A DNA stretch of 64,000 nt from Sulfurospirillum sp. GTDB taxonomy: Bacteria; Campylobacterota; Campylobacteria; Campylobacterales; Arcobacteraceae. The notes beneath the pieces were generated by a model that worked only from the letters and a program-made list of their open reading frames with translations, searched no databases and was not told where the DNA came from. The translations under genes and the position numbers were made by a program. This document shows positions 3,573 to 55,891 of this stretch, piece by piece. Positions within the stretch are counted from its first letter, which is position 1. Every line of letters starts with the position of its first letter. The stretch covers positions 62,001-126,000 of the forward strand of contig JAKZMJ010000005.1 in assembly GCA_030491005.1 (NCBI GenBank), in the 5' to 3' direction.

Positions 3573-4364
3573 TTATTTATTTGCTTTTATATAAAGATTT
3601 TTTTGAACTCCATTTGTAGCTAATCGTTCTTCAATTATGAAAAGATTATTTTTTTCTTTGATTAAGTCTGAGAGTTTTTTATAGCCATAGAGTCTTGAAT
3701 CAAAATCTGGCTGTAATTTTGTGAGGTAACTGCCAAAAGTTCCTAGGTGTGCCCAACCTGTGTCGTCAATTGATTGATCAAGAGCATCTAAAAGAAATTT
3801 TACGGGAAAATTTATTTTTAAATCATCTACATGTTTTAATTCTTGAGTTTTAATATTTATTTCAGAATTTTCAATATTTATATTATTTGTATTTGGTCTT
3901 AATATTTCTGTAAAAATAAATTTATGACAGGCATTTCTAAAGGCTATTGGTGTTTTTTTTTCACCAAAACCTAGCACCGTTAGTCCTTCTTCTTTTAAAC
4001 GAACAGCTAGCCCTGTAAAGTCACTATCACTTGTAATTAAACAAAAACCATCAAATTTACGGGTATACAATAAGTCCATGGCATCAATAATCATAGTACT
4101 GTCCGTAGCATTTTTTCCTGTTGTATATGCAAATTGTTGAATAGGTTTTATAGCATATGTTTGAAGAACTTTTTTCCAAGAAGCACTTGTAGGTGAAGTA
4201 AAATCCCCATATATTCTTTTTACATTAGCCTCTCCATATCTAGCTATTTCTGCAAAAAGTCCTTCGGTGACTGTTGCTTGAGCATTATCTGCATCTATTA
4301 ATACAGCTAATCTAAGTATTCTCTCTTCTGATTCATTTTTTACTATTAATTTATTGGTAGTCAT
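3573..4364 (-). CDS. NYN-domain putative RNase with C-terminal OST-HTH/LOTUS domain
   Basis: 263 aa. Residues about 15-150 form a NYN (PIN-like) nuclease domain: AVLIDADNAQ near the start, DSTMIIDAMDLLY and LITSDSDFTGLAVRLKEEG, with acidic residues spaced for metal-dependent RNA cleavage. Residues about 185-262 fit an OST-HTH/LOTUS module (LLDALDQSIDDTGWAHLGTFG, then SRLYGYKKLSDLI), known to bind RNA, including G-quadruplex RNA in studied cases. The family is widespread but its targets are unknown. It follows infA after about 215 bases and a terminator, so it is probably a separate transcript. No signal peptide; cytoplasmic. Confidence 0.85.
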   Translation of the reverse strand: MTTNKLIVKNESEERILRLAVLIDADNAQATVTEGLFAEIARYGEANVKRIYGDFTSPTSASWKKVLQTYAIKPIQQFAYTTGKNATDSTMIIDAMDLLYTRKFDGFCLITSDSDFTGLAVRLKEEGLTVLGFGEKKTPIAFRNACHKFIFTEILRPNTNNINIENSEINIKTQELKHVDDLKINFPVKFLLDALDQSIDDTGWAHLGTFGSYLTKLQPDFDSRLYGYKKLSDLIKEKNNLFIIEERLATNGVQKNLYIKANK

Positions 4365-4581: not shown

Positions 4582-4800
4582 CTATTTATATCTGTGAGTA
4601 ATTCTTCCCTTATCCAAAGAATAAGGAGTAATTTCAACTTTAACTTTATCATTTGGTAATATTTTAATATAATGCATTCTCATTTTACCAGAGATATGGC
4701 ATAAAACCACATGACTATTACTTAATTCAACTTTAAACATAGCATTTGGTAATGACTCAATTACCTTACCATCAATCACTATTACATCATCTTTTGCCAC
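4582..4800 (-). CDS. infA: Translation initiation factor IF-1
   Basis: 72-aa single OB-fold protein that occupies the ribosomal A site during initiation. It starts [11 protein letters not shown], has the basic [20 protein letters not shown] core and ends GRITHRYK, all standard for IF-1. It is the last gene of the operon, 14 bases after map. The alpha operon (rpmJ, rpsM, rpsK, rpsD, rpoA, rplQ), which follows infA in many bacteria, is not here, as in Campylobacter. Confidence 0.97.
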
Positions 4801-4814
4801 TTTAACTCCTATTT

Positions 4815-5579
4815 TTACTCTTCTAATTTACTTAAAATTACAGCTTTACCATTAATAACAGCCATTGTATGTTCATAATGGGAAGCTCTTAAACCATCTT
4901 TGGAAACGACATCCCAGTTATTTTTTAAGATAACTGGCTCTTGCTCTTTTTGACAAATCATAGGTTCTAAACAAAATACCATTCCATTTTTTATTTTTGG
5001 ACCAGCTTTAATATTAGATGTTTCTATATAATTTGGAATTTCTGGTTCACAATGAGGTTTTTTACCAATACCGTGACCACAAAAACGTGTCAATGGAACA
5101 TAACCTCTATTTCTAATAAATTTTTCAATGTGAGCTGATAATTCTTTAAATCTCATACCTTCTTTTATAATAGAAATAGCATAATATAAGGTGTCTTTAG
5201 AACAAGCTATTAAATCTTCATCTTCTTTAGAAATATGACCAATTGGCATAGTAATTGCAGCATCACCATACCACCCATCAATTTCACTACCAATATCAAG
5301 CCCAAGAATATCACCTTCTTTTAAAGCAATATCACTTGGAATTCCATGAATGATAACTTCATTTAATGAGGTACAAACAGCTGCTGGAAAGCCATATAAA
5401 CCTTTAAACGAAGGTCTTGCTCCTAGTTGTACTATAAATTCATCACCCATAGTATCAACTTCTTTTAATGTCATACCAGCTTTTACATTATTTTTTAAAT
5501 AATCTAATGTTTTAGCAACAGCCAAAGAGGCTATTCTAAGTTTTTCTATTTCTTTTGGTTTTCTTAGTGCAATTGCCAT
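4815..5579 (-). CDS. map: Type I methionine aminopeptidase
   Basis: Removes the initiator methionine from nascent proteins. 254 aa. The metal-binding residues are visible: Asp pair in LGLDIG and YGDAAIT (about 93-107), His in [16 protein letters not shown] (about 168), Glu in CLEPMI (about 201) and Glu in YEHTMAV (about 235). There is no N-terminal zinc extension, so it is the short bacterial type Ia. It lies between secY (5-base gap) and infA, the common arrangement. Confidence 0.97.
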
Positions 5580-5584
5580 AAGTC

Positions 5585-6850
5585 CTATAAACCAACAGCA
5601 CTTAATGTTTCATATTTATTCATATATTGTTGTGCTTCAATTTTTCTCATAGTATCAATTGCTACTTGAACAACAATTAAAACAGCAACCCCTCCAAAAT
5701 AAAATGGAACTCCCATAGCTTTTACTAAAAGCCAAGGCAAAGTTGAAACTGAGGCTAAATATAATGCACCCCAAAATGTTAGTTTTCCTGCGACATCATT
5801 TAAAAACTCAGCAGTTGATGTTCCAGGACGAACTCCTGGAATAAATCCACCTTGTTTTTTCAAGTTTTCAGAAATATCTTTTGCATTGAATGTAATTGAT
5901 GCATAAAAGAACGCAAAAAACACTACAAATAAGAACATAAAAACATTGAATGAATATGAAGTAGGACTTAAATAATCTGCTAAGACTAAAAGATATTCAT
6001 TTTGTGTACCTTGCAAAATAGTTGCAGGAAACATTAAAATAGCTGAGGCAAAAATAGCAGGAATTACACCTGAAAGATTTACTTTAATAGGAATATAATT
6101 CATCACTCTTTTGTTTTGATTTTGCATCATCACTTTTCTTGAATAAGAAACAGGAACTCTTCGCTCACCTAATTCTACATATATAATAGAACCAACCGTA
6201 GCTAAAATAATAACTATAATTGCAATAACGGTTAGAAAATTCATCTGTCCATTATTAACTAAATCAATAGTTCCACCAATAGCACTAGGAATTGCTGAGA
6301 CTATACCTGCAAATATAATTAATGAAATACCATTACCGATACCTCTTTGTGTGATTTGTTCACCAATCCACATTAGAAGCATAGTTCCTGTTAACATGGA
6401 AATAGAAGATACTGCTATAAAAGTATCCATATCTATGGATATCGCATTCTCTCCACTTGAACCAGTTAAGGAATTTAAGCCCATGGATACACCAATAGAT
6501 TGAATAAGTGTTATTACAATAGTAGCATATCTTATAATTTGCATATATTTTTGCATACCATCTTTTTCTTTTTTCATTTTTCCAAGAGCTGGAAAAGTTG
6601 CCGCTAACAACTCCATAATAATTGAAGCTGTGATATAAGGCATAATACCTAAAGAAATAATACTTAATCTCTCAATTGCATTACCACTAAACATATTTAC
6701 TAATCCAAGAGCATTATTCGCATTTGTATCAAAAAATTCTTTTACAACATCTATATTAACTCCAGGAACTGGTACATATGCCAATAACCTATAAATAAAT
6801 ATAAAACCTAATGTTAGAAGTATCTTATTAATTAGATCCTTACTCATCAT
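5585..6850 (-). CDS. secY: Preprotein translocase channel subunit SecY
   Basis: Forms the membrane pore of the SecYEG translocon. 421 aa with about ten hydrophobic segments. Typical SecY marks are PGVNIDVVKEFF after TM1, GIMPYITASIIMELL (TM2b), TQRGIGNGISLIIFAGIV, the cytosolic loop ERRVPVSYSRKV and GGFIPGVRPG. ATG 6850 overlaps the rplO stop; the next codon but one, ATG 6847, is an equally possible start. It is translationally coupled to rplO. Confidence 0.97.
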   Translation of the reverse strand: MMSKDLINKILLTLGFIFIYRLLAYVPVPGVNIDVVKEFFDTNANNALGLVNMFSGNAIERLSIISLGIMPYITASIIMELLAATFPALGKMKKEKDGMQKYMQIIRYATIVITLIQSIGVSMGLNSLTGSSGENAISIDMDTFIAVSSISMLTGTMLLMWIGEQITQRGIGNGISLIIFAGIVSAIPSAIGGTIDLVNNGQMNFLTVIAIIVIILATVGSIIYVELGERRVPVSYSRKVMMQNQNKRVMNYIPIKVNLSGVIPAIFASAILMFPATILQGTQNEYLLVLADYLSPTSYSFNVFMFLFVVFFAFFYASITFNAKDISENLKKQGGFIPGVRPGTSTAEFLNDVAGKLTFWGALYLASVSTLPWLLVKAMGVPFYFGGVAVLIVVQVAIDTMRKIEAQQYMNKYETLSAVGL

Positions 6851-7248
6851 TAGTTACCAGTTGTTGTGACATTATCATCTTTAATGTTAGGAAGTAATCC
6901 TTTAGCAGTTTTACCAATTAATTTTACTTTTGTAACACTTTTAGATAATTTATACACAGACTTAATTGTTTCAATAGTTAGCTCTTCAAGTTTTGCAACT
7001 TGTTTAACTTTATCAACATTAATTGTATAAGGTTTAGATACTCTTGAAAAAAAACCAACCTTTGGAAGTCTTCTATGAATTGGTTGTTGACCACCTTCAA
7101 AACCTCTTTTGATTTTATATCCAGATCTAGATTTTTGACCTTTATGACCTCTTGTAGCAGTCTTGCCCATTCCTGAAGCTTGACCACGACCAACTCTTTT
7201 AATCTTTCTTGAGCTACCACTTGCAGCTTTTAAGTTATCTAATACCAT
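6850..7248 (-). CDS. rplO: 50S ribosomal protein L15
   Basis: 132-aa 23S rRNA-binding protein of late 50S assembly. The glycine/arginine-rich N-terminus ([20 protein letters not shown]), [18 protein letters not shown] and the C-terminal [14 protein letters not shown] helix are typical. It follows rpsE directly: no rpmD (L30) between them, a loss normal for this phylum. Confidence 0.96.
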
Positions 7249-7253
7249 ATTGC

Positions 7254-7694
7254 TTATCCTTTTATTCTAGCTAATGCTTCAACAGTAGCTTGTACAAGGT
7301 TATTTGGATTATTTGAACCTAAAGACTTCGCAATAATATCTTTAATTCCTGAAAGTTCAAGAACAGGACGAGCTGCTCCACCTGCAATAAGTCCAGTACC
7401 TTCACTTGCTGGTTTTAATAGAATTTTACTAGCATTATATTTATGTTCAATATCATGTGCTATTGTTGTTCCTTTAATAGATACACTAACTAAACTTTTA
7501 AATGCATCGTCTAAAGCTTTTTTAATAGCATCTGGAACTTCTTTTGCTTTTCCAGTTCCAAATCCAATAGTGCCTTTTTTATCACCAACAACAACTAAAG
7601 CTGTAAATCTAAATCTTCTACCACCTTTTACAACTTTTGTTACTCTTCCAATTTTAACGATTGCTTCTTGAAAATCATCTTTATTAATTGCCAT
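7254..7694 (-). CDS. rpsE: 30S ribosomal protein S5
   Basis: 146 aa. The double-stranded RNA-binding domain ([19 protein letters not shown]) and the C-terminal domain ([31 protein letters not shown]) are both present. S5 lies near the mRNA entry and decoding site. ATG 7694 is preferred over ATG 7697 because it leaves 6 rather than 3 bases after the AAAGG site. Confidence 0.96.
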
Positions 7695-42793: not shown

Positions 42794-42821
42794 CAAATTG
42801 TTATTTAATATTTATTTTTAC

Positions 42822-42891
42822 TCATAACGGTTGTCGTGAGCGATAATTTTCCCGCTAGGGTAAATTATTGGTTTCCTCGTACTTGTTATCT
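42822..42891 (-). other. attC-like site E (short type)
   Basis: 70 bp after the stop of the last cassette gene. In cassette orientation it opens AGATAACAAGTACGAGG and ends CGACAACCGTTATGA. The inner arms AATAATTTACCC and GGGAAAATTAT form a strong hairpin around TAGC. The outer arms AAC...GTT pair imperfectly, as in integron attC sites. Its leftmost edge is 29 bases from the IS at 42793, so the array is cut here. Confidence 0.7.
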
Positions 42892-43393
42892 ATTCAAACA
42901 TCTCAAGTACTTTCTTTTTACCCAGTTCAGTTAAATTGTTTTTACAATTTTTATTATCAAGTATAATATATCCTTTAGTAGCTAGTGATTTTAAAATCAT
43001 TTCGGTTTTAACCTTTGGAATTGACGTGTGAGAATCAATTCTATTAATATAATCAGATGTATTGTTTTCATTTGTAATGCTTTTAGTGTAAATGGTTTCC
43101 AATATCATTACTTCATCTGATGTAAATTCATTTGAAAACTGTTCATATTTTTTATCTTTAATAATATTTGGAACATGAAATGCAGACTCTATGGTATTAA
43201 AAGATTTTAATTGTTCTACATATACTTCTTGTTCAGCTACAAAAAGTTCATTGTTTTCTTCATCTTTAAAAGTTAAACTTGTTTTAAGTGCGGTTCCAAC
43301 TTCTAATCCTGTATCAGCATGAATATATAGGGTATCTCCTTTTAAGACATCTACTCATTCTTCGAATTTATTCTCTTTTGTTTCTGTTGTCAA
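42890..43393 (-). pseudogene. Cassette gene of unknown function with in-frame TGA at codon 13
   Basis: From TTG 43393, which has a strong GGAGG site 5 bases upstream, a single frame of 168 codons runs to 42890, interrupted only by TGA at 43357-43355 (KFEE-stop-VDVLKGD). A Trp codon, TGG, is the likely ancestor. The product would have a small beta-rich part (LYIHADTGLEVGTAL, then LTFKDEENNELF) and a C-terminal winged-helix-like region with TEMILKSLATKGYIIL. No family recognised. No SECIS-like hairpin follows the TGA, so recoding is unlikely. It lies between attC A and attC E as one cassette. Confidence 0.6.
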
Positions 43394-43466
43394 AATATCC
43401 TCCAATAGTAAGTATTATTTAATTTAAAGAGTTATTGATTCTTGTTTAAATTACAATCCAAGATGA

Positions 43467-43600
43467 GTATAACGGCAAAGGTGAGGAACGATGTGGGTAT
43501 TACGGCTTGATAGTCTGAATTTTCAAGTATCTTTATACGACACTTAAAAGCTCGATATTTGCGCAGTGTACACTCGTTTCTCTCCTCCGATTTGTTAGGT
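43467..43600 (-). other. attC-like site A (long type)
   Basis: 134 bp. In cassette orientation R'' is ACCTAAC (43600-43594), a perfect RYYYAAC, and R' is GTTATAC (43473-43467). The ends pair: AACAAATCGGAGGAGAGAAACGAG matches the complement of the other end, AACGGCAAAGGTGAGGAACGA, with small bulges. It differs from site B at only about 14 of 134 positions. Confidence 0.8.
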
Positions 43601-43603
43601 ATT

Positions 43604-44053: not shown

Positions 44054-44087
44054 TTTAATCCTTGCTGTTTATATTTAAATAATTAGT

Positions 44088-44222
44088 ACCTAACGGCTAA
44101 ATTGAAGGACGATGGCGATTTAACGACTTGATTATTTGCTACGCCAAGTATCTTAGTGCGACACTTAAAAGCTCGAATAATCGCCGTGGTAGCCTCGTTC
44201 TTCTTCCAATGATTTGTTATAC
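44088..44222 (-). other. attC-like site C (long type)
   Basis: 135 bp. R'' is GTATAAC (44222-44216) and overlaps the stop codon of the zinc-ribbon gene; R' is GTTAGGT (44094-44088), a perfect GTTRRRY. The ends pair as AACAAATCATTGGAAGAAGAACGAGG against AACGGCTAAATTGAAGGACGATGG. The centre shares CGACACTTAAAAGCT with sites A and B. Confidence 0.78.
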
Positions 44223-44639
44223 ATCATAGCTGTTTTTACAAATCTTACAAGTCCAATGCTCCTCACTCCAAACACTTTCTCTATCCATTACTTTTGGAAA
44301 ATGTTCTAAATGATGATATTTTGAATCTTTTTCAAAACAAACTGTACAAAATGGCGTTTTGTCATTTTCTGCCCAATACATTTTTCCATCAAATGATATT
44401 TTTTCTTTTTTATTAAGTTCTTCTTTTAAATTAAGTATTGTTTGTTCTTTATCTCTTTGTGAAACTTGAACTTCTGAAAGTTCTATTTTAATATCAGCTA
44501 AAGCACTAATTAAGTCTGCCATTTTAAGTTTTATTTCTGCTTCTTCAAGGGAAGTTGTGCTATTTTTAATTAATTTAGCAATATCTGTTGCTGTTTTAAT
44601 GCTTGATAAAATTGTACTGATTTCTGTAATTCCTGTCAT
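44217..44639 (-). CDS. Coiled-coil protein with C-terminal zinc ribbon (cassette gene)
   Basis: 140 aa from ATG 44639, which has AAGGA 6 bases upstream. A longer frame reaching to 44729 translates attC G and is rejected. Residues about 45-85 are a charged coiled coil (ADIKIELSEVQVSQRDKEQ). The C-terminal region GKMYWAENDKTPFCTVCFEKD and WTCKICK carries two CxxC pairs that should bind zinc. Similar small proteins occur in mobile cassettes; function unknown. Confidence 0.75.
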   Translation of the reverse strand: MTGITEISTILSSIKTATDIAKLIKNSTTSLEEAEIKLKMADLISALADIKIELSEVQVSQRDKEQTILNLKEELNKKEKISFDGKMYWAENDKTPFCTVCFEKDSKYHHLEHFPKVMDRESVWSEEHWTCKICKNSYDV

Positions 44640-44651
44640 GCTAATCCTTTT

Positions 44652-44786
44652 GTATAACGGTCGAATATAAAAATATGTTACCCGTTCTTGTAGTCTTTTA
44701 AGTTCTACAATGGTATCTAAAATTTTCAAGTTTTGATACTTTTTTTCGGCAGAGGTAACATATTTTTTTACTATGTTTTGTTATGT
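44652..44786 (-). other. attC-like site G (long type)
   Basis: 135 bp. R'' reads ACATAAC (44786-44780) and R' GTTATAC (44658-44652). Inner arms AAAATATGTTACC and GGTAACATATTTT pair almost perfectly. The ribosome site of the next cassette begins within 10 bases of R'. Confidence 0.75.
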
Positions 44787-44988
44787 CGTCGTGCTTCTAA
44801 TGTCCTAAAAGTCTCAACGGAAGTTAGTTGCGCTTGTAAGGGTTTTACTCTTACTTCGTTTAGTAAGTAACTTGGCGTTTACTGAGAAGGCTTTTCTCTT
44901 TCTTCTCTGCGTTTAAGCTTGTAAACTCTCTTTTTAAGTTGGTTTTTTTTGATAAAAATCAATTCTAAGCAAGGTGCTTACGATAGAC
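44787..44988 (-). other. Cassette without a recognisable gene
   Basis: About 200 bases between attC F and attC G. No reading frame above about 15 codons with a start was found in the cassette direction. An internal inverted repeat is present around TTACTTACTAAACGAAGTAAG. The base composition is noticeably richer in G and C than the flanking genes. Could be a promoter or small-RNA cassette, or a decayed gene. Confidence 0.5.
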
Positions 44989-45056
44989 ACATAACGACTG
45001 TAGTGAGTGAATAAGTTTCCGATAGGTAACTTATTCGCTCCACTTACTTGTTATGA
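44989..45056 (-). other. attC-like site F (short type)
   Basis: 68 bp. Cassette orientation: TCATAACAAGTAAGTGGAGC to CTACAGTCGTTATGT. Inner arms GCGAATAAGTTACC and GGAAACTTATTC pair around TATC. Related to site E in length and layout. It begins 3 bases after the stop of the OmpA-like gene. Confidence 0.75.
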
Positions 45057-45059
45057 GAC

Positions 45060-45746
45060 TTACTGTAGCTGCTCAACAATTTTGTATATTTTTTCCTGAG
45101 CTTTTGTTAAAACTTTAAACTCTACTCTTCTTGATTTTTGATAATCCTGTTTCCCATTATCTTTCAGTATCAATTTTGAAAATGCCATACCGTTAGCTCT
45201 GAAGTGTGATTCTAGCCAAATTCTATCTTCTTGAATAATTAAATTTTTTATTGAATAACAAAATTTTAATACATTATTTGCTCTCTCTTGAGATAGCTTC
45301 ATATTTTTTAAGTATATAATTTGTTTTGATTTTGCTCCATTCCAAGCATTTGAAGTATGACCCTCTATTCGTATTTCATCTATTTCATCTTTATATTTTT
45401 TTGTCGATAATAGTTTTATATATCTAGGGAAAAAGTCATTCAAAATACTTTTAAATTCATTAGATATATTACTACTTCCTGATGCAAACAAAACCTCAGG
45501 TGAATTAAATCTAAAAATATTATTATCAGTAATTTCTGCACCCCATCTTTCTAAGTCTTTATTAAATTCTTTTTTTAAGTCCATATTTAAAGATTTTTGG
45601 GATTTCTGATATGTCATAGCTATTTCTTTTACCGCTTGCTGTTCATCTTGAACTTGAACCATAAACGCAATGGCTATAAATAAAAAAACCATCATTAATC
45701 CTGACATCATGTCGGATATACTTATCCATTCTGTATTTACTTTCAT
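45060..45746 (-). CDS. ZorB-like protein (MotB-like helix plus OmpA domain)
   Basis: 228 aa. A single membrane helix near the N-terminus (SDMMSGLMMVFLFIAIAFM, residues 11-29) carries an Asp at its start, aligned with the proton-carrying Asp of MotB. The C-terminal OmpA-like domain (about 95-225) has VLFASGSSNIS, IRIEGHTSN, LSQERANNVLKFC and SRRVEFKV, so it should grip peptidoglycan. With the MotA-like and HNH genes upstream this fits the ZorB role in Zorya type II defence. It is the third gene of the cassette, 2 bases after the HNH gene. Confidence 0.72.
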   Translation of the reverse strand: MKVNTEWISISDMMSGLMMVFLFIAIAFMVQVQDEQQAVKEIAMTYQKSQKSLNMDLKKEFNKDLERWGAEITDNNIFRFNSPEVLFASGSSNISNEFKSILNDFFPRYIKLLSTKKYKDEIDEIRIEGHTSNAWNGAKSKQIIYLKNMKLSQERANNVLKFCYSIKNLIIQEDRIWLESHFRANGMAFSKLILKDNGKQDYQKSRRVEFKVLTKAQEKIYKIVEQLQ

Positions 45747-45748
45747 AT

Positions 45749-46537
45749 TTATAACCTCTCTTTTAATTTTACAAAATCATAATAATCTTGGCTATTTTTA
45801 ATATGAATATGCCTATATTGTTTTGCATGACATTCAATACATAATACCTTTAAGTTTTCAGGTGTATTATTTATAATATTAGCATCTTCATGATGAGTGT
45901 GTAAGTATTTTTTTAAACTATTATTATTTAAGTCGATGAAGCATTCTTGGCATACCCACTTATGATACGCTTTTCTTTCAGCAGATATTTTATTCCAATT
46001 TGAAGCATATGTTTCAGGAATAGTAGACATATCATTTGCAATTGTAATATATGGTTGAGGGTGTTTCATTGGTTCCTTCATATAACTTTTTATACTAAAA
46101 TTTTTGACAGTATTATTTTTATAATAAGTACTTTTATATTGTCCTAGACAATCACGATTGCATATATTTAGCTTAGCATATGATTTATTTTCTCCTCTTA
46201 TGACCCAGAAGTTACCATCAAACCTTGAAGCTTTTTTATATCTATGTCCTCTATTATTTTTTCTCATACTTTCAAGTGTAGTACATTCAAAAATATGAAA
46301 CTTAGGAAGGGAATAATCACCATTATATGCTTTTATATTACAAATATGTACGATAGTTTTCCGTATTGTTCCATCTTTTAAGATAGTGAACAATTCTCCT
46401 TTTGTACTGAAGAATACATCACTTAGATCTGTGTCAAGTCCTTCATTTTCAAATAATCTTATTTCAGTTTTTGCAACCTGATCAATTTTTATTTTATTAA
46501 CAGCTCTCCAAAGTTCACTAAAGTCAGTAATTTTCAT
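45749..46537 (-). CDS. HNH endonuclease between ZorA- and ZorB-like genes
   Basis: 262 aa. C-terminal HNH nuclease: CQEC (about 195), LHTHHEDANIINNTPENLKVLCIECH (about 213-238), with four Cys for structural zinc and the H-N-H catalytic set. The N-terminal about 170 residues match nothing known to me; they contain FWVIRGENKSYAKLNICNRDC and could sense DNA or partner with the channel. In Zorya type II the nuclease ZorE is an HNH protein but is normally encoded after zorB; here it is in the middle. Start overlaps the previous stop (ATGA-type). Confidence 0.8.
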   Translation of the reverse strand: MKITDFSELWRAVNKIKIDQVAKTEIRLFENEGLDTDLSDVFFSTKGELFTILKDGTIRKTIVHICNIKAYNGDYSLPKFHIFECTTLESMRKNNRGHRYKKASRFDGNFWVIRGENKSYAKLNICNRDCLGQYKSTYYKNNTVKNFSIKSYMKEPMKHPQPYITIANDMSTIPETYASNWNKISAERKAYHKWVCQECFIDLNNNSLKKYLHTHHEDANIINNTPENLKVLCIECHAKQYRHIHIKNSQDYYDFVKLKERL

Positions 46538-47838
46538 TATGAAAGATTATTAGTTCGCATTAATTTAGAAATTTGTTCTAAAAAACTTTCGTAGTCACGA
46601 GCAAGCTGACTAGTTAATGAAGTTAGTGATTTATTTAATGTATCAAGTGATTTAGGTAATTGATTTTCCAATTCTGATGTTAATTTGGATAATGCTTCTG
46701 ATTGACTTGATAATGTTGTTTTGATTTCATCTGAGAATATTTTCAATTGTTCAACAATTCCTTTTGAGGCATCACTTACTTCTGCAAAAGCCTTTAAATG
46801 ATTCTCCAAATTATTTATTTGATTATCATTTGTAGTAATAATACTTTGTAATTTTTTAGAGAGTTCATTTATATTTTCATAATCATCTGTAATTTGTTTT
46901 ATAACTTTAGTATTTTCATTACTGATTGATATAGTAGTATCTATTTTTTCAAATAATATTTCAGTGACTTTTTTCACTTTTTCACTTTCAAGCTTATTCT
47001 GTTCAAAATTTTCTTTTATTGAGTTATTCATCTCTTTAGAGAACTCATTAACATTATGCATAGCAACTTCTAATCGTTTTTCACTATCTGCAATCGAGTT
47101 TTTATAATTCTCTTGCCATTTAATCATATTTTTTACAGACTCATTCAGTTGTTTGAAATTATCTCCAAACTGTTCCGTTAAGTTTTTATTGAAATCTTGA
47201 ATTACATTTTCAAGTGCTTTTATAATTTCTTCAGTTGCACCCTCTGCTAGTGCATCAATCGCATCTTCCAAAGATTGATTAATTTTATCTAAACTTTTTT
47301 CTAAAAATTCAAAAAGTATTTTTTGATCACTACTCATTTGTTCTTTTACACTTGAAATATCTTGTGAAAGAGTTTTTATATTTGTATCCATTGAATCAAG
47401 TTTAGTATTCATTAACGGTAGTGTGTCTAGTTGTTTTAATCTTTCATCTATACTTCCAAGAACTGAAAGTTTTTCCAAATGTGTATTTATTGAATTTAAA
47501 ATTTGAAGTTCATCTTCAATATCTCCATGACCACTTGTTTTTTGAGTGATCGATAATCCAATTGAAATAGCCATACCTGTAATCGAGGTTATAAAAGCTG
47601 TTTTTAAACCATCAAGTAAAATAGGAACACTACCTTTAATATCTGTTGTATTAAACTCCATTAAACCTAAAAAAATTCCTAAAAATGTTCCTAAAACACC
47701 AATGCTTATTATTATGGATTTATAATCTTGATGGTCATCAGTTTTAGCACTAGCATAATCTTTAAATGCAAGAATCAGCATTGTAAGTGCAAAAATTCCA
47801 GTAATTATTAATGTTTGTGTTGAGAAAGTTTCTATCAT
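46537..47838 (-). CDS. ZorA-like MotA/TolQ/ExbB channel protein with long coiled-coil tail
   Basis: 433 aa. Three membrane helices: about 8-24, about 42-64 (SIGVLGTFLGIFLGLMEF) and about 80-100 (LKTAFITSITGMAISIGLSI), the last two forming the MotA/ExbB-type proton-channel core. Residues about 115-430 are almost entirely heptad-rich coiled coil, resembling the long intracellular tail known from ZorA. It pairs with the OmpA-domain gene downstream as MotA pairs with MotB. AAGGA lies 10 bases upstream; first gene of the three-gene cassette after attC D. Confidence 0.75.
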   Translation of the reverse strand: MIETFSTQTLIITGIFALTMLILAFKDYASAKTDDHQDYKSIIISIGVLGTFLGIFLGLMEFNTTDIKGSVPILLDGLKTAFITSITGMAISIGLSITQKTSGHGDIEDELQILNSINTHLEKLSVLGSIDERLKQLDTLPLMNTKLDSMDTNIKTLSQDISSVKEQMSSDQKILFEFLEKSLDKINQSLEDAIDALAEGATEEIIKALENVIQDFNKNLTEQFGDNFKQLNESVKNMIKWQENYKNSIADSEKRLEVAMHNVNEFSKEMNNSIKENFEQNKLESEKVKKVTEILFEKIDTTISISNENTKVIKQITDDYENINELSKKLQSIITTNDNQINNLENHLKAFAEVSDASKGIVEQLKIFSDEIKTTLSSQSEALSKLTSELENQLPKSLDTLNKSLTSLTSQLARDYESFLEQISKLMRTNNLS

Positions 47839-47864
47839 TTGGCTTGTTCCTTATGGATTATGTC

Positions 47865-47996
47865 TTATAACGCTTAAAGTGAGCTACAAGATGGATTTAT
47901 GCAAGATATATTCGCTATTTTATATATCTAATTTAATACAATAAAAGCTAAATATTTTCGCAATGTAATCTTGTTATCTCCTCTGATTTGTTGTAC
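47865..47996 (-). other. attC-like site D (long type)
   Basis: 132 bp. R'' GTACAAC (47996-47990), R' GTTATAA (47871-47865). Ends pair as AACAAATCAGAGGAGATAACAAGAT against AACGCTTAAAGTGAGCTACAAGAT. It shares the CAAATC-GAGGAGA start with sites A and B. Confidence 0.78.
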
Positions 47997-48018
47997 CTTA
48001 ATATCTATCTTTACTTAT

Positions 48019-48705
48019 CTATAAATCTATCAACTCTAAACTTTTTATAATACTTTCATCTAAAAATTTGCATAAATCATCTTTATCATTTATAGCTTTT
48101 AAATAATCATCTCTATGTTCATTTTCAATAAGTGGAGGAATAATATTATTTTGAATAGCTTGATATGCCATTAATAATCTTCCTACTCTTCCATTTCCAT
48201 CTGAAAATGGATGTATTCTTTCAAATTGAATATGAAAATCAGATATATCCAATAAATTCATATCATTACTTTTTATTCTGTACAATAAGTTTTCAATATC
48301 ATTTGAAATCATATGTGGTAAAGATAATTTTATATCTACACCTTTTATGTATCTTTCATCAGACCGATATGCTCCAATAGGTTTGGATATATATTCTGGT
48401 GATACCTTTAGCGCATCTTCAAACATAATGGCATGAATATCTTTTATAAAGCTACTATCAATTATATTGTATGGATTTGTAGCTTCACGAATGATTACAT
48501 CATAAGCTTTTGCAAAGCCTAATATCACAAGTTGTTCAGCAAGTGGTTTATCTCCTGCTGTATTTCCATGTTCTAGTAACTCTTTTGTTTCTCCAAATGA
48601 TAAGGTAGTTCCTTCCATTGCATTTGAATGATGAGTAATCGAGATTCTTAACTGTCTTAAAAGTTCTTCTCTTTGTTTTAGTGTTAGTTTGTTTAGTTGT
48701 TGCAT
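48019..48705 (-). CDS. Fic family AMPylator-type protein (cassette gene)
   Basis: 228 aa. Canonical Fic motif HPFSDGNGRVGR (about 166-177) with the catalytic His, so adenylylation (AMPylation) of a target protein is expected. An N-terminal inhibitory motif (S/T)xxxE(G/N) is visible as SNAMEG (about 28), which marks a self-inhibited class II Fic protein, so no separate antitoxin is needed. It overlaps the upstream HEPN-like gene by 13 bases and the two travel as one cassette. Target unknown. Confidence 0.9.
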   Translation of the reverse strand: MQQLNKLTLKQREELLRQLRISITHHSNAMEGTTLSFGETKELLEHGNTAGDKPLAEQLVILGFAKAYDVIIREATNPYNIIDSSFIKDIHAIMFEDALKVSPEYISKPIGAYRSDERYIKGVDIKLSLPHMISNDIENLLYRIKSNDMNLLDISDFHIQFERIHPFSDGNGRVGRLLMAYQAIQNNIIPPLIENEHRDDYLKAINDKDDLCKFLDESIIKSLELIDL

Positions 48706-50213
48706 GTTTGCATTTCCTCCTTATTTTTACTTTTCAATTCTCCAAGAGTTTGAAATAATTTAGTAATCTTGTTACTTTTTTTATCGTCACATTTATTTTT
48801 TAAAATAGAAATTAGTTCCTCAAAACCTTTTAAATATTTAATACCATACTCTAATATTTCATCATTAAATTTATCCAAAAAGTCATCTTCTAGATATTGT
48901 TGTTTTATTGTATCTAATTTAATAATTTCATTATTATAAAAACTTGGTATTTCTAATTCCAATAGTCTAATGATACTAATTAAGTTGTCATAATCAATTA
49001 TAGTGATATCAGTTTTATTAATAGTTTTAATATAGTTGTTTAATGGTATTCTTTCATTTGTGATAATTTGACAAACAGAAAATAAGTCAAATAATAAAAA
49101 AACTGCTTGAAATTCATCTTTTGTATCAAAATATCTTCCATGAGCAACTTTATTTCGTATAATAGGAAATCTAAATGAAAAGTATTCATAATTTACTAAA
49201 TTAAGATTATTGTTTTTTTCTTTTAATCTATCAAGTTTTGCATTTAAAGCTGATATGTTTAACTCTTTTTCTTTTATATTCATCAAGAGACAATAATCGT
49301 GAAATAATCCCTCAATTTGAAGTGGCAACATATTATTTACAGATATGTAATCCTTACTGTTGAAATGGTTTATTATAGTAGATAAGATTTGTTTTCTTTC
49401 ATGTAAAATATGATTTTTATCTACATTATCTTCTATAATTTCGAGTAATTTATTTTCAAACATATATTTTTTTAAATATTCTAAAACTTCAACTTTATTA
49501 TTATCATTTAAAAGTTCTTTTATTCTTGTATGTTCATCATCATCTAAATCTAACATTTTGTTATTTAAATCTGAAAAATCATCAATATCATATACATTAG
49601 GATAAAATAGTAATTTATTTCTTAAATTAAAATATAAATAGTTTTCTCTTTTTAATGTATCGTAACTATAATTTAGTCCCTTACAATCAATTCTACAATC
49701 ATAATATGCTGTATTGTAAATATCATAGGCTAAAAAATATAATATAGATTCTTCTGCCTCTTTATTTTTTTCTATATAATATTGAATATGTTTTATTTTA
49801 TATCTGCTATCTCCATCTAAAAAACCTTTTTCAGGTTTTGTATTTTCTATTTCTTTTATCTTAATATTCAACTTTTTTATTGTAGATTTTATTTCTAATA
49901 AATCATGTGAAGCTTTATTGTATAATGTAAATAAAACATCTTTTGGGGTTTTATTTAAATATAAATATTTCTCTGCAATATATTTATAAAAATCAGATCC
50001 ATTTTGTATTTTAATCTCATCACTAAATATTTCTTGATAATTTTTAATTATATCTTTAACCATAGAATTAAAAATATCTAAATCTAAAAAGTTACCTAAA
50101 AATTGTTTTGATATATAATTTAAATCAACATAAAAAAAATAATCTTCATTTTTAATTTTTTCTCTATATTCAGTATATTCATTGTCGGGATATTCTGTCA
50201 AATTATTAAGCAT
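48693..50213 (-). CDS. Large HEPN-like protein, partner of Fic (cassette gene)
   Basis: 506 aa, mostly helical, very rich in Asn, Lys and Asp. The segment FRFPIIRNKVAHGRYFD (about 345-361) holds R-x4-H (RNKVAH), the catalytic signature of HEPN ribonucleases, in the usual sequence context. The N-terminal 250 residues contain heptad-like helices (IKKLNIKIKEIENTKPEKG) and no recognised domain. Coupling with fic suggests a joint toxic or abortive module; this is inference. No strong ribosome site precedes ATG 50213. Confidence 0.6.
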   Translation of the reverse strand: MLNNLTEYPDNEYTEYREKIKNEDYFFYVDLNYISKQFLGNFLDLDIFNSMVKDIIKNYQEIFSDEIKIQNGSDFYKYIAEKYLYLNKTPKDVLFTLYNKASHDLLEIKSTIKKLNIKIKEIENTKPEKGFLDGDSRYKIKHIQYYIEKNKEAEESILYFLAYDIYNTAYYDCRIDCKGLNYSYDTLKRENYLYFNLRNKLLFYPNVYDIDDFSDLNNKMLDLDDDEHTRIKELLNDNNKVEVLEYLKKYMFENKLLEIIEDNVDKNHILHERKQILSTIINHFNSKDYISVNNMLPLQIEGLFHDYCLLMNIKEKELNISALNAKLDRLKEKNNNLNLVNYEYFSFRFPIIRNKVAHGRYFDTKDEFQAVFLLFDLFSVCQIITNERIPLNNYIKTINKTDITIIDYDNLISIIRLLELEIPSFYNNEIIKLDTIKQQYLEDDFLDKFNDEILEYGIKYLKGFEELISILKNKCDDKKSNKITKLFQTLGELKSKNKEEMQTCNN

Positions 50214-50308: not shown

Positions 50309-50358
50309 GCTTTTTTCTGCACTATTCTTTATTATTTAATTGGTGATTGTATTCATGG

Positions 50359-50492
50359 GTACAACGCCATAGGTGAGGAACGATGTGGGTATCACGGCTT
50401 AATAATTTGAATTTTAAAGTATCTTTATGCGACACTTAAAAGCTAGATATTTTCGCAGTTTACACTCGTTTCTCTCCTCCGATTTGTTATAT
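50359..50492 (-). other. attC-like site B (long type)
   Basis: 134 bp. R'' ATATAAC (50492-50486), R' GTTGTAC (50365-50359). Nearly identical to site A, 7 kb away, including the run CGTTTCTCTCCTCCGATTTG on the plus strand, although the adjacent genes are unrelated. This is what is expected of attC sites of one integron type. Confidence 0.8.
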
Positions 50493-50498
50493 CTTTAT

Positions 50499-54570: not shown

Positions 54571-54766
54571 ACACCCCTGTGATTGAATATCCACCTTTAT
54601 GATATACTTCGACTTTATGAAACCGATACTAAGATAAAAAGAGATTTAGCTATACTAAGTGCTTATAAAGATGGATATACTCAAGTCAAGATAGCAACAC
54701 ATCTGAAATTATTAACCTCAATGATTAGTAAGATTATCAAGAGTGGATATTCAATCACAGGGGTGT
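54571..54766 (+). mobile_element. MITE-like element, copy 1
   Basis: 196 bp with perfect 24-bp terminal inverted repeats (54571-54594 and 54743-54766; outer bases ACACCCCTGTGATTG). Inside is a frame (from 54583) matching the C-terminal tail of a RAYT-like transposase: ILSAYKDGYTQVKIATHL, then a helix-turn-helix ending SMISKIIKS. AATAAACACCCC is present twice just outside and at the left end. Non-autonomous derivative of a REP/RAYT-type element by inference. Confidence 0.7.
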
Positions 54767-54820
54767 AGTTTTACGATTTGTCCGATATATTATATTAACT
54801 TACTCTGTTATTTATGATAG

Positions 54821-55541: not shown

Positions 55542-55593
55542 TATTTATTATCAAACATTATAACCTAATTAGCATAATATACTATACAAATAA

Positions 55594-55768
55594 ACACCCC
55601 TGTGATATACTTCGACTTTATGAAACCGATACTAAGATAAAAAGAGATTTAGCTATACTAAGTGCTTATAAAGATGGATATACTCAAGTCAAGATAGCAA
55701 CACATCTGAAATTATCAACCTCAATGATTAGTAAGATTATCAAGAGTGATATTCAATCACAGGGGTGT
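55594..55768 (+). mobile_element. MITE-like element, copy 2
   Basis: 175 bp, direct repeat of copy 1 with near-identical interior. It lacks 20 bases of the left inverted repeat (lost between two TGAT repeats) and one G of the right repeat. Its interior keeps a Ser where copy 1 has Leu in the helix-turn-helix. The two copies flank the protease gene. 55769-55891 holds no recognised feature except the ribosome site of the next gene. Confidence 0.7.
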
Positions 55769-55891
55769 AGTTTTCTATTATGCTTCAAACTCTGCTGTAC
55801 TCGTGTTTAAAGATATAGTGAAAGTTTTAATTAAATAACATGTAATTCTATTTCATTTACTTTAAGATATCATAAATTATTGGAGTTCATT

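What the first reader, a model, noticed from the sequence alone, without database searches (positions are those of the whole stretch)
45060..47838. Zorya-like three-gene module carried as one integron cassette, with the HNH gene in the middle
A MotA/ExbB-like channel with a long coiled-coil tail, an HNH nuclease and an OmpA-domain protein with a MotB-like Asp helix are packed with overlaps or a 2-base gap between attC D and attC F. Zorya type II has ZorA, ZorB and the HNH protein ZorE, in that order. Here the order is channel-HNH-OmpA and the nuclease has a large novel N-terminal part. It may be a new Zorya subtype that moves as a single cassette.
Basis: partly seen in the sequence, partly recalled or inferred. 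Interest (0 to 1): 0.85.

Follow-up and report, generated by a model that had tools for sequence, protein, structure and literature searches.

The report
Zorya type II in integron cassette
A complete three-gene bacterial anti-phage system of a known type (Zorya II) sits, with its genes in a shuffled order and almost no room for a promoter of its own, inside one movable gene cassette of a chromosomal integron, a mode of carriage that also turned up once in an unrelated bacterium.

Summary
Three intact genes on the minus strand, 45060-47838, encode a MotA-like channel with a long tail, an HNH nuclease and a MotB/OmpA protein. They lie between two attC sites of one array, as a cassette of about 2,875 bp with a leader of about 30 nt. 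They are Zorya type II: PADLOC ZorA2 3e-64, ZorE2 4e-46, ZorB2 3e-92, and the best solved relative is the type II ZorAB of Sulfuricurvum kujiense (8VVI). The order A-E-B is unusual: all 68 other complete loci found are A-B-E, and window ZorB and ZorE nest among A-B-E relatives, so the order is derived. A second cassette-borne Zorya II (A-B-E) was found in Desulforhopalus vacuolatus, beside an integron-integrase remnant. Cautions: every long integrase copy in this genome carries an in-frame stop, so mobility now is doubtful, and ZorE has Ile where E. coli has Lys231, reported as needed for defence. Activity is untested.

The parts
46537..47838 (-). zorA (433 aa): MotA/ExbB-like membrane part (three hydrophobic helices near residues 7-25, 42-60, 80-98) followed by a tail of about 330 residues
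   Evidence: PADLOC ZorA2 E 3.3e-64 over residues 5-419; solved relative 8vvi_F, type II ZorA of S. kujiense, E 2.4e-30; T80-S85 region conserved; hydrophobicity
45749..46537 (-). zorE (262 aa): ZorE N-terminal zinc-site domain plus HNH nuclease domain; no C-terminal extension
   Evidence: PADLOC ZorE2 E 3.6e-46 over 15-259; NCBIfam ZorE E 4.7e-26, below its cut-off; residues equivalent to E. coli H90, Y189, H225, H226, N238, H247, H253 kept, K231 is Ile
45060..45746 (-). zorB (228 aa): one membrane helix with ion-binding Asp12, then OmpA-type peptidoglycan-binding domain
   Evidence: PADLOC ZorB2 E 3.1e-92; Pfam OmpA 38.3 bits over cut-off 27.2; 8vvi_A E 2.8e-52; D12, H130, S132, R206 match D24, H141, S143, R215 of E. 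coli ZorB II
44988..45058 (-). attC of the Zorya cassette (about 65 nt), starting about 3 nt after the zorB stop codon
   Evidence: DNA fold z -4.4 and -5.7; found by a covariance model that did not include it, E 0.006; 85% like the attC at 42821-42893
47864..47998 (-). attC of the upstream cassette; its end is the 5' boundary of the Zorya cassette
   Evidence: covariance model 96 bits, E 2.8e-18 (site was in the training set); own fold weak, z 0.2 to 0.3
44994..47868 (-). inferred cassette unit from one G^TT cleavage point to the next, 2,875 bp
   Evidence: sequence at both junctions; position of the cut inferred from known integron chemistry
47839..47868 (-). leader of about 30 nt with a Shine-Dalgarno-like AAGGAA and no sigma-70-like match within it
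48019..50213 (-). neighbouring two-gene cassette: Fic protein (228 aa) and a 506-aa protein of unknown family
   Evidence: Pfam Fic 65.7 bits; PADLOC PDC-S04 E 2.9e-38 and SoFic E 1.6e-19
50358..50494 (-). attC upstream of the Fic cassette
   Evidence: model 137.7 bits (training member)
43466..43602 (-). attC further down the array
   Evidence: model 139.5 bits (training member)
44087..44224 (-). attC further down the array
   Evidence: model 143 bits (training member)
44651..44788 (-). attC-like site with long inverted arms
   Evidence: fold z -3.6 and -3.5; model 63.3 bits (training member)
42821..42893 (-). short attC at the far end of the array
   Evidence: 85% like 44988-45058; model 22.9 bits, E 0.055, not a training member

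Best explanation
This is a complete Zorya type II anti-phage system carried as one three-gene integron cassette, with zorE moved between zorA and zorB. Inferred mechanism, by homology to studied type II systems: five ZorA and two ZorB form an ion-driven motor in the inner membrane. ZorB binds peptidoglycan and senses envelope disturbance by phage, ion flow turns ZorA and its cytoplasmic tail, and ZorE is drawn to the membrane, where it nicks phage and host DNA and stops phage spread. The cassette has almost no room for a promoter of its own, so transcription probably comes from upstream cassettes or from within the neighbouring attC. The three genes look translationally coupled (TAATG overlap; 2-nt gap). 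Shown here: family membership, gene order, cassette boundaries, conservation of most key residues. Inferred: everything about activity, expression and excision.
For: All three genes hit type II profiles over most of their length. The solved type II ZorAB is the best structural relative by sequence. Asp12 and the peptidoglycan-binding residues H130, S132 and R206 are kept (roles from PMC11890865). The ZorE zinc-site and HNH residues are kept (roles from PMC13192584). A, B and E occur together in 68 other loci. The attC array is in one orientation, with the site downstream of zorB found by a model that did not include it. A second cassette-borne Zorya II lies in Desulforhopalus vacuolatus (L148): integron-integrase remnant, then GTTGGAC at 4641, zorA-B-E, then an attC ending in GTTGGAC at 7685 with fold z -4.4.
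Against: No activity is shown. ZorE has Ile221 and Ala at the positions of Lys231 and Gly229 of E. coli ZorE; Lys231 is reported as required for defence (PMC13192584), though 18 of 61 homologues, the window included, lack Lys there. Scores fall below the NCBIfam equivalog cut-offs: 154 of 700, 225 of 400, 91 of 600 bits. Every long integrase copy has an in-frame TAG. The upstream attC folds poorly on its own.
Confidence: 0.88

Rival explanations
1. A decaying Zorya II: the genes are intact in frame, but the system is silent or inactive because it has no promoter, its integron is dead and ZorE has lost an active-site lysine.
For: About 30 nt of leader and no promoter-like site within it; integrase pseudogenes; Lys231 to Ile and Gly229 to Ala; a broken zorE in the relative L049 shows that such loci decay.
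Against: Three intact, overlapping or nearly abutting frames in DNA of 27% G+C; most functional residues kept; 17 other ZorE homologues of 61 also lack that Lys; cassettes are normally without promoters.
Confidence: 0.25
2. A new Zorya subtype whose different gene order goes with a different way of coupling ZorE to ZorAB.
For: A-E-B in 1 of 69 complete loci; ZorE is only about 30 to 35% identical to its nearest homologues, whereas ZorB reaches 62%.
Against: Window ZorB and ZorE both nest among A-B-E loci, with L092 and L093 near in both trees; no extra or missing gene; domain make-up as in other short ZorE proteins.
Confidence: 0.06
3. A motor of the flagellar, Tol or Exb kind with an unrelated HNH gene beside it.
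For: ZorA and ZorB share their core fold with MotAB and related motors (PMC11890865).
Against: MotA_ExbB scores 16 bits against a cut-off of 22.9, while ZorA2 scores 216; the HNH protein hits ZorE profiles along its length.
Confidence: 0.01

Closest known systems
Zorya type II of E. coli (zorA2-zorB2-zorE, e.g. plasmid NZ_CP026578.2)
   Same: Same three families; ion-binding Asp, peptidoglycan-binding and most ZorE functional residues kept
   Different: Order A-B-E there, A-E-B here; E. coli ZorE has 367 aa with a C-terminal extension that is absent here; Lys231 is Ile here; ZorA tail shorter
Zorya II ZorAB of Sulfuricurvum kujiense (PDB 8VVI)
   Same: Best solved relative of both ZorA and ZorB; ZorA of similar size (378 against 433 aa)
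   Different: Order A-B-E (L044, taken to be the S. kujiense locus from its 378-aa ZorA); not flanked by the attC family tested; ZorB about 42% identical
Zorya II of uncultured Sulfurovum (L092) and a Campylobacteraceae genome (L093)
   Same: Nearest ZorB (62% identity) and the same well-supported ZorB and ZorE groups
   Different: Order A-B-E; no match to the attC model
Defence cassettes of sedentary chromosomal integrons (Darracq et al. 2025, cited in PMC13064858 and PMC12409358; paper itself not held)
   Same: Phage-defence genes carried as integron cassettes
   Different: Whether Zorya is among them could not be checked; in the held papers with both words, the passages I read do not describe it

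Membership tests
Zorya type II | ZorA: MotA/ExbB-like channel with cytoplasmic tail, scoring best with ZorA2 | tested here: met
   ZorA2 216 bits, best ZorA3 61, best ZorA1 50
Zorya type II | ZorB: membrane helix with ion-binding Asp and OmpA-type domain, scoring best with ZorB2 | tested here: met
   ZorB2 307 bits, best ZorB1 177; D12 aligned with D24; OmpA over its Pfam cut-off
Zorya type II | ZorE: N-terminal zinc-site domain plus HNH nuclease, in place of ZorC/ZorD or ZorF/ZorG | tested here: met
   ZorE2 156 bits over 15-259; H81, C85, C130, H215, H216, C233, C236 kept; AlphaFold model pLDDT 87, of which mainly the HNH part resembles solved folds, weakly
Zorya type II | Genes adjacent on one strand | tested here: met
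   1-base overlap and 2-base gap
Zorya type II | Order zorA-zorB-zorE (usual, not part of the definition) | tested here: not met
   A-E-B here; A-B-E in the other 68 complete loci
Zorya type II | NCBIfam equivalog cut-offs for ZorA2, ZorB2, ZorE | tested here: not met
   154/700, 225/400, 91/600 bits; my reading is that these cut-offs are set tightly round E. coli-like proteins
Zorya type II | Nicking by ZorE, ion flow through ZorAB, protection from phage | not testable with these tools
   needs the bench
Integron cassette | Gene(s) followed by their own attC, bounded by a preceding attC or attI, in one orientation | tested here: met
Integron cassette | Integron integrase in the genome that recognises these attC sites | tested here: inconclusive
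   Integrase genes of TIGR02249 present, one beside the same attC family, but all long copies have an in-frame TAG; same-genus genome G415 has one without stops
New Zorya subtype | Accessory genes unlike those of types I, II and III | tested here: not met
   only zorE accompanies zorAB

The most novel reading that the evidence does not exclude
Complete three-gene Zorya II systems have been packed into integron cassettes more than once (here, and in Desulforhopalus vacuolatus), and the cassette form in this lineage has a permuted order that changes the amounts or coupling of the parts, so that integrons act as a source of rearranged membrane-motor defence systems.
Probability: 0.15. Interest if true: 0.6.

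Novelty: new member of a known kind. Interest (0 to 1): 0.4.

Why it matters
Integrons are known to store phage-defence genes, but a cassette is usually thought of as one small promoterless gene. A whole membrane-motor defence system of about 2.9 kb in one cassette, seen in two unrelated phyla, widens what integrons can move as a unit. The permuted order gives a natural test of whether A-B-E order matters for Zorya II assembly.

Tried and rejected
New subtype by gene content: rejected, only zorE is present. Novel N-terminal nuclease domain: rejected, it is conserved across ZorE; a fold search of the model found only weak, mainly HNH, look-alikes, so the N-terminal domain has no solved relative found here. 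Other homologues in the family of this genome: only one weak partial ZorE match in the other genomes of 104 searched. A home-made attC scanner first missed the known sites and then gave too many false hits (21 in 20 kb) to survey other loci, and its other hits were discarded. Rfam: nothing in the region. A ZorE alignment was too diverse for the genome-contig scan, so ZorB was used.

Full report
What is there. Three ORFs on the minus strand, 47838-46537, 46537-45749 and 45746-45060, encode 433, 262 and 228 residues. The first two share one base (TAATG) and the last two are 2 nt apart. G+C is 27%, like the window.

What they are. PADLOC profiles give ZorA2 3.3e-64, ZorE2 3.6e-46 and ZorB2 3.1e-92, each well ahead of type I and III models where these exist. 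Pfam MotA_ExbB and HNH fall below their cut-offs, OmpA passes. NCBIfam names the same type II families but below its strict equivalog cut-offs, so the proteins are divergent from the E. coli ones. Among solved structures the best match for ZorA and ZorB is 8VVI, the type II ZorAB of Sulfuricurvum kujiense, a 5:2 complex (PMC11890865). Residues reported as needed in E. coli map as follows: ZorB D24, H141, S143, R215 to D12, H130, S132, R206, while R230 maps to Tyr as it does in L092 (roles from PMC11890865). ZorE H90, Y189, H226, N238, L239, H247, H253 are kept, but K231 is Ile221 (roles from PMC13192584). Of 61 ZorE sequences 43 have Lys there.

The nuclease's N-terminal part. ZorE2 profiles align from residue 9 or 15 on. 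H81, C85 and C130, which lie in this part, are invariant in 61 homologues. PMC13192584 calls the domain DUF8245. The AlphaFold model (pLDDT 87, pTM 0.57) matches solved folds only weakly and mainly through the HNH part. So the domain is not novel to this protein, though it has no solved relative that I found. The C-terminal extension of E. coli ZorE is absent.

Gene order. In loci gathered from plasmids, Campylobacterota genomes, GTDB genomes and viral contigs, 68 with all three genes are A-B-E and one, the window, is A-E-B. The GTDB scan kept the 80 best of at least 485 relatives, so rarer orders may exist. In the ZorB tree the window falls in a group of 11 rows (support 100/99) that includes A-B-E loci L049, L092 and L093. 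In the ZorE tree it falls with L092, L093 and others (98/87). The order is therefore most likely a derived local rearrangement.

The cassette. Minus-strand attC sites lie at 42821-42893, 43466-43602, 44087-44224, 44651-44788, 44988-45058, 47864-47998 and 50358-50494. Five of these were in the 12-sequence model; the two short ones were not, and scored E 0.055 and 0.006. The consensus stem has 10 pairs, 6 with changes on both sides that keep the pair. The attC at 44988-45058 begins about 3 nt after the zorB stop and folds far better than shuffles. The upstream boundary lies about 30 nt before the zorA start, with no promoter-like match inside it. The unit is therefore a 2,875-bp cassette whose transcription must come from outside or from within the neighbouring attC.

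The integron. The genome has three nearly full-length integrase genes of TIGR02249 plus fragments, none on the window's contig C5. All three long copies carry a TAG at the same place and two also a TGA. The copy on contig C15 stands next to attC sites of the same family in the divergent arrangement usual for integrons. The array in the window is bounded by transposase genes. Sixteen of 104 genomes of the family, this one included, have an integrase over the model's cut-off, and the same-genus genome G415 has one without stops. Present movement in this strain is therefore doubtful, past movement likely.

A second case. In L148 (Desulforhopalus vacuolatus) an integron-integrase remnant lies at 3759-4320 on the minus strand; GTTGGAC occurs at 4641; zorA-zorB-zorE follow at 4677-7556; and an attC runs from GTCCAAC at 7561 to GTTGGAC at 7685, fold z -4.4 on the bottom strand. 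This is the textbook layout of a first cassette and it is A-B-E, so the two packagings look independent. Of the loci searched, L148 was the only clear one; my attC scanner was too unspecific to count others.

How it would work. By homology with tested type II systems (PMC11890865), ZorAB senses infection at the envelope, ion flow drives the motor, and ZorE is drawn to the membrane and nicks DNA. None of these steps was tested here.

Novelty. The parts and their combination are Zorya II. What is uncommon is the order and the carriage. Nine held papers contain both 'Zorya' and 'integron', and the passages I read in three of them do not describe Zorya in a cassette. The key integron-defence paper (Darracq et al. 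2025) is cited there but not held, so I cannot claim a first.

The neighbouring cassette, 48019-50213, pairs a Fic protein that matches the PADLOC candidate PDC-S04 and SoFic with a 506-aa protein of unknown family, which fits an array that stores defence genes.

Noticed in passing
L148:3759-7691 (Desulforhopalus vacuolatus): Second Zorya II (A-B-E) laid out as a first integron cassette next to an integrase remnant, bounded by GTTGGAC at 4641 and 7685.
   Followed up: partly
L005, L006, L007 (own genome C15, C2, C23): Three nearly full-length integron-integrase genes share the same in-frame TAG (SPAT*NQAF) and an identical N-terminal part, though they diverge later; two also have a TGA. Shorter copies end at a repeated element.
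   Followed up: partly
L054/L164, L055, L056, L061: Sulfurimonas-type module: PLD-like protein with an apparent signal peptide (371 aa in L055), small proteins, a ZorA of about 210 aa without the long tail, and ZorB of the window's own group; no HNH gene found.
   Followed up: partly
L051, L052, L062, L125, L150, L159: Many Helicobacteraceae genomes carry a ZorA-like protein with a very long tail (644-890 aa in all) and ZorB, with no zorE found beside them; in L052 ExbB and ExbD genes lie just upstream.
   Followed up: partly
L109, L112, L118, L121, L124, L138, L144 and similar: Oceanospirillaceae and relatives have A-B followed by a protein of about 157-180 aa with only a weak match to ZorE (about 30 bits); the one in L112 shows no Pfam domain.
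   Followed up: partly
48019-50213: Neighbouring two-gene cassette: Fic protein matching PADLOC PDC-S04 and SoFic, and a 506-aa protein of unknown family.
   Followed up: partly
54586-54772 and 55589-55774: Repeated element of about 185 nt (96-100% alike) that seems also to end truncated integrase copies elsewhere in the genome (L009, L011).
   Followed up: no
44789-44987: About 200 nt between two attC sites without an ORF of 50 aa or more: possibly an ORF-less cassette.
   Followed up: no
L049:5882-6723: Near relative (G177) with zorE split into two frames, so Zorya II loci do decay in this phylum.
   Followed up: no
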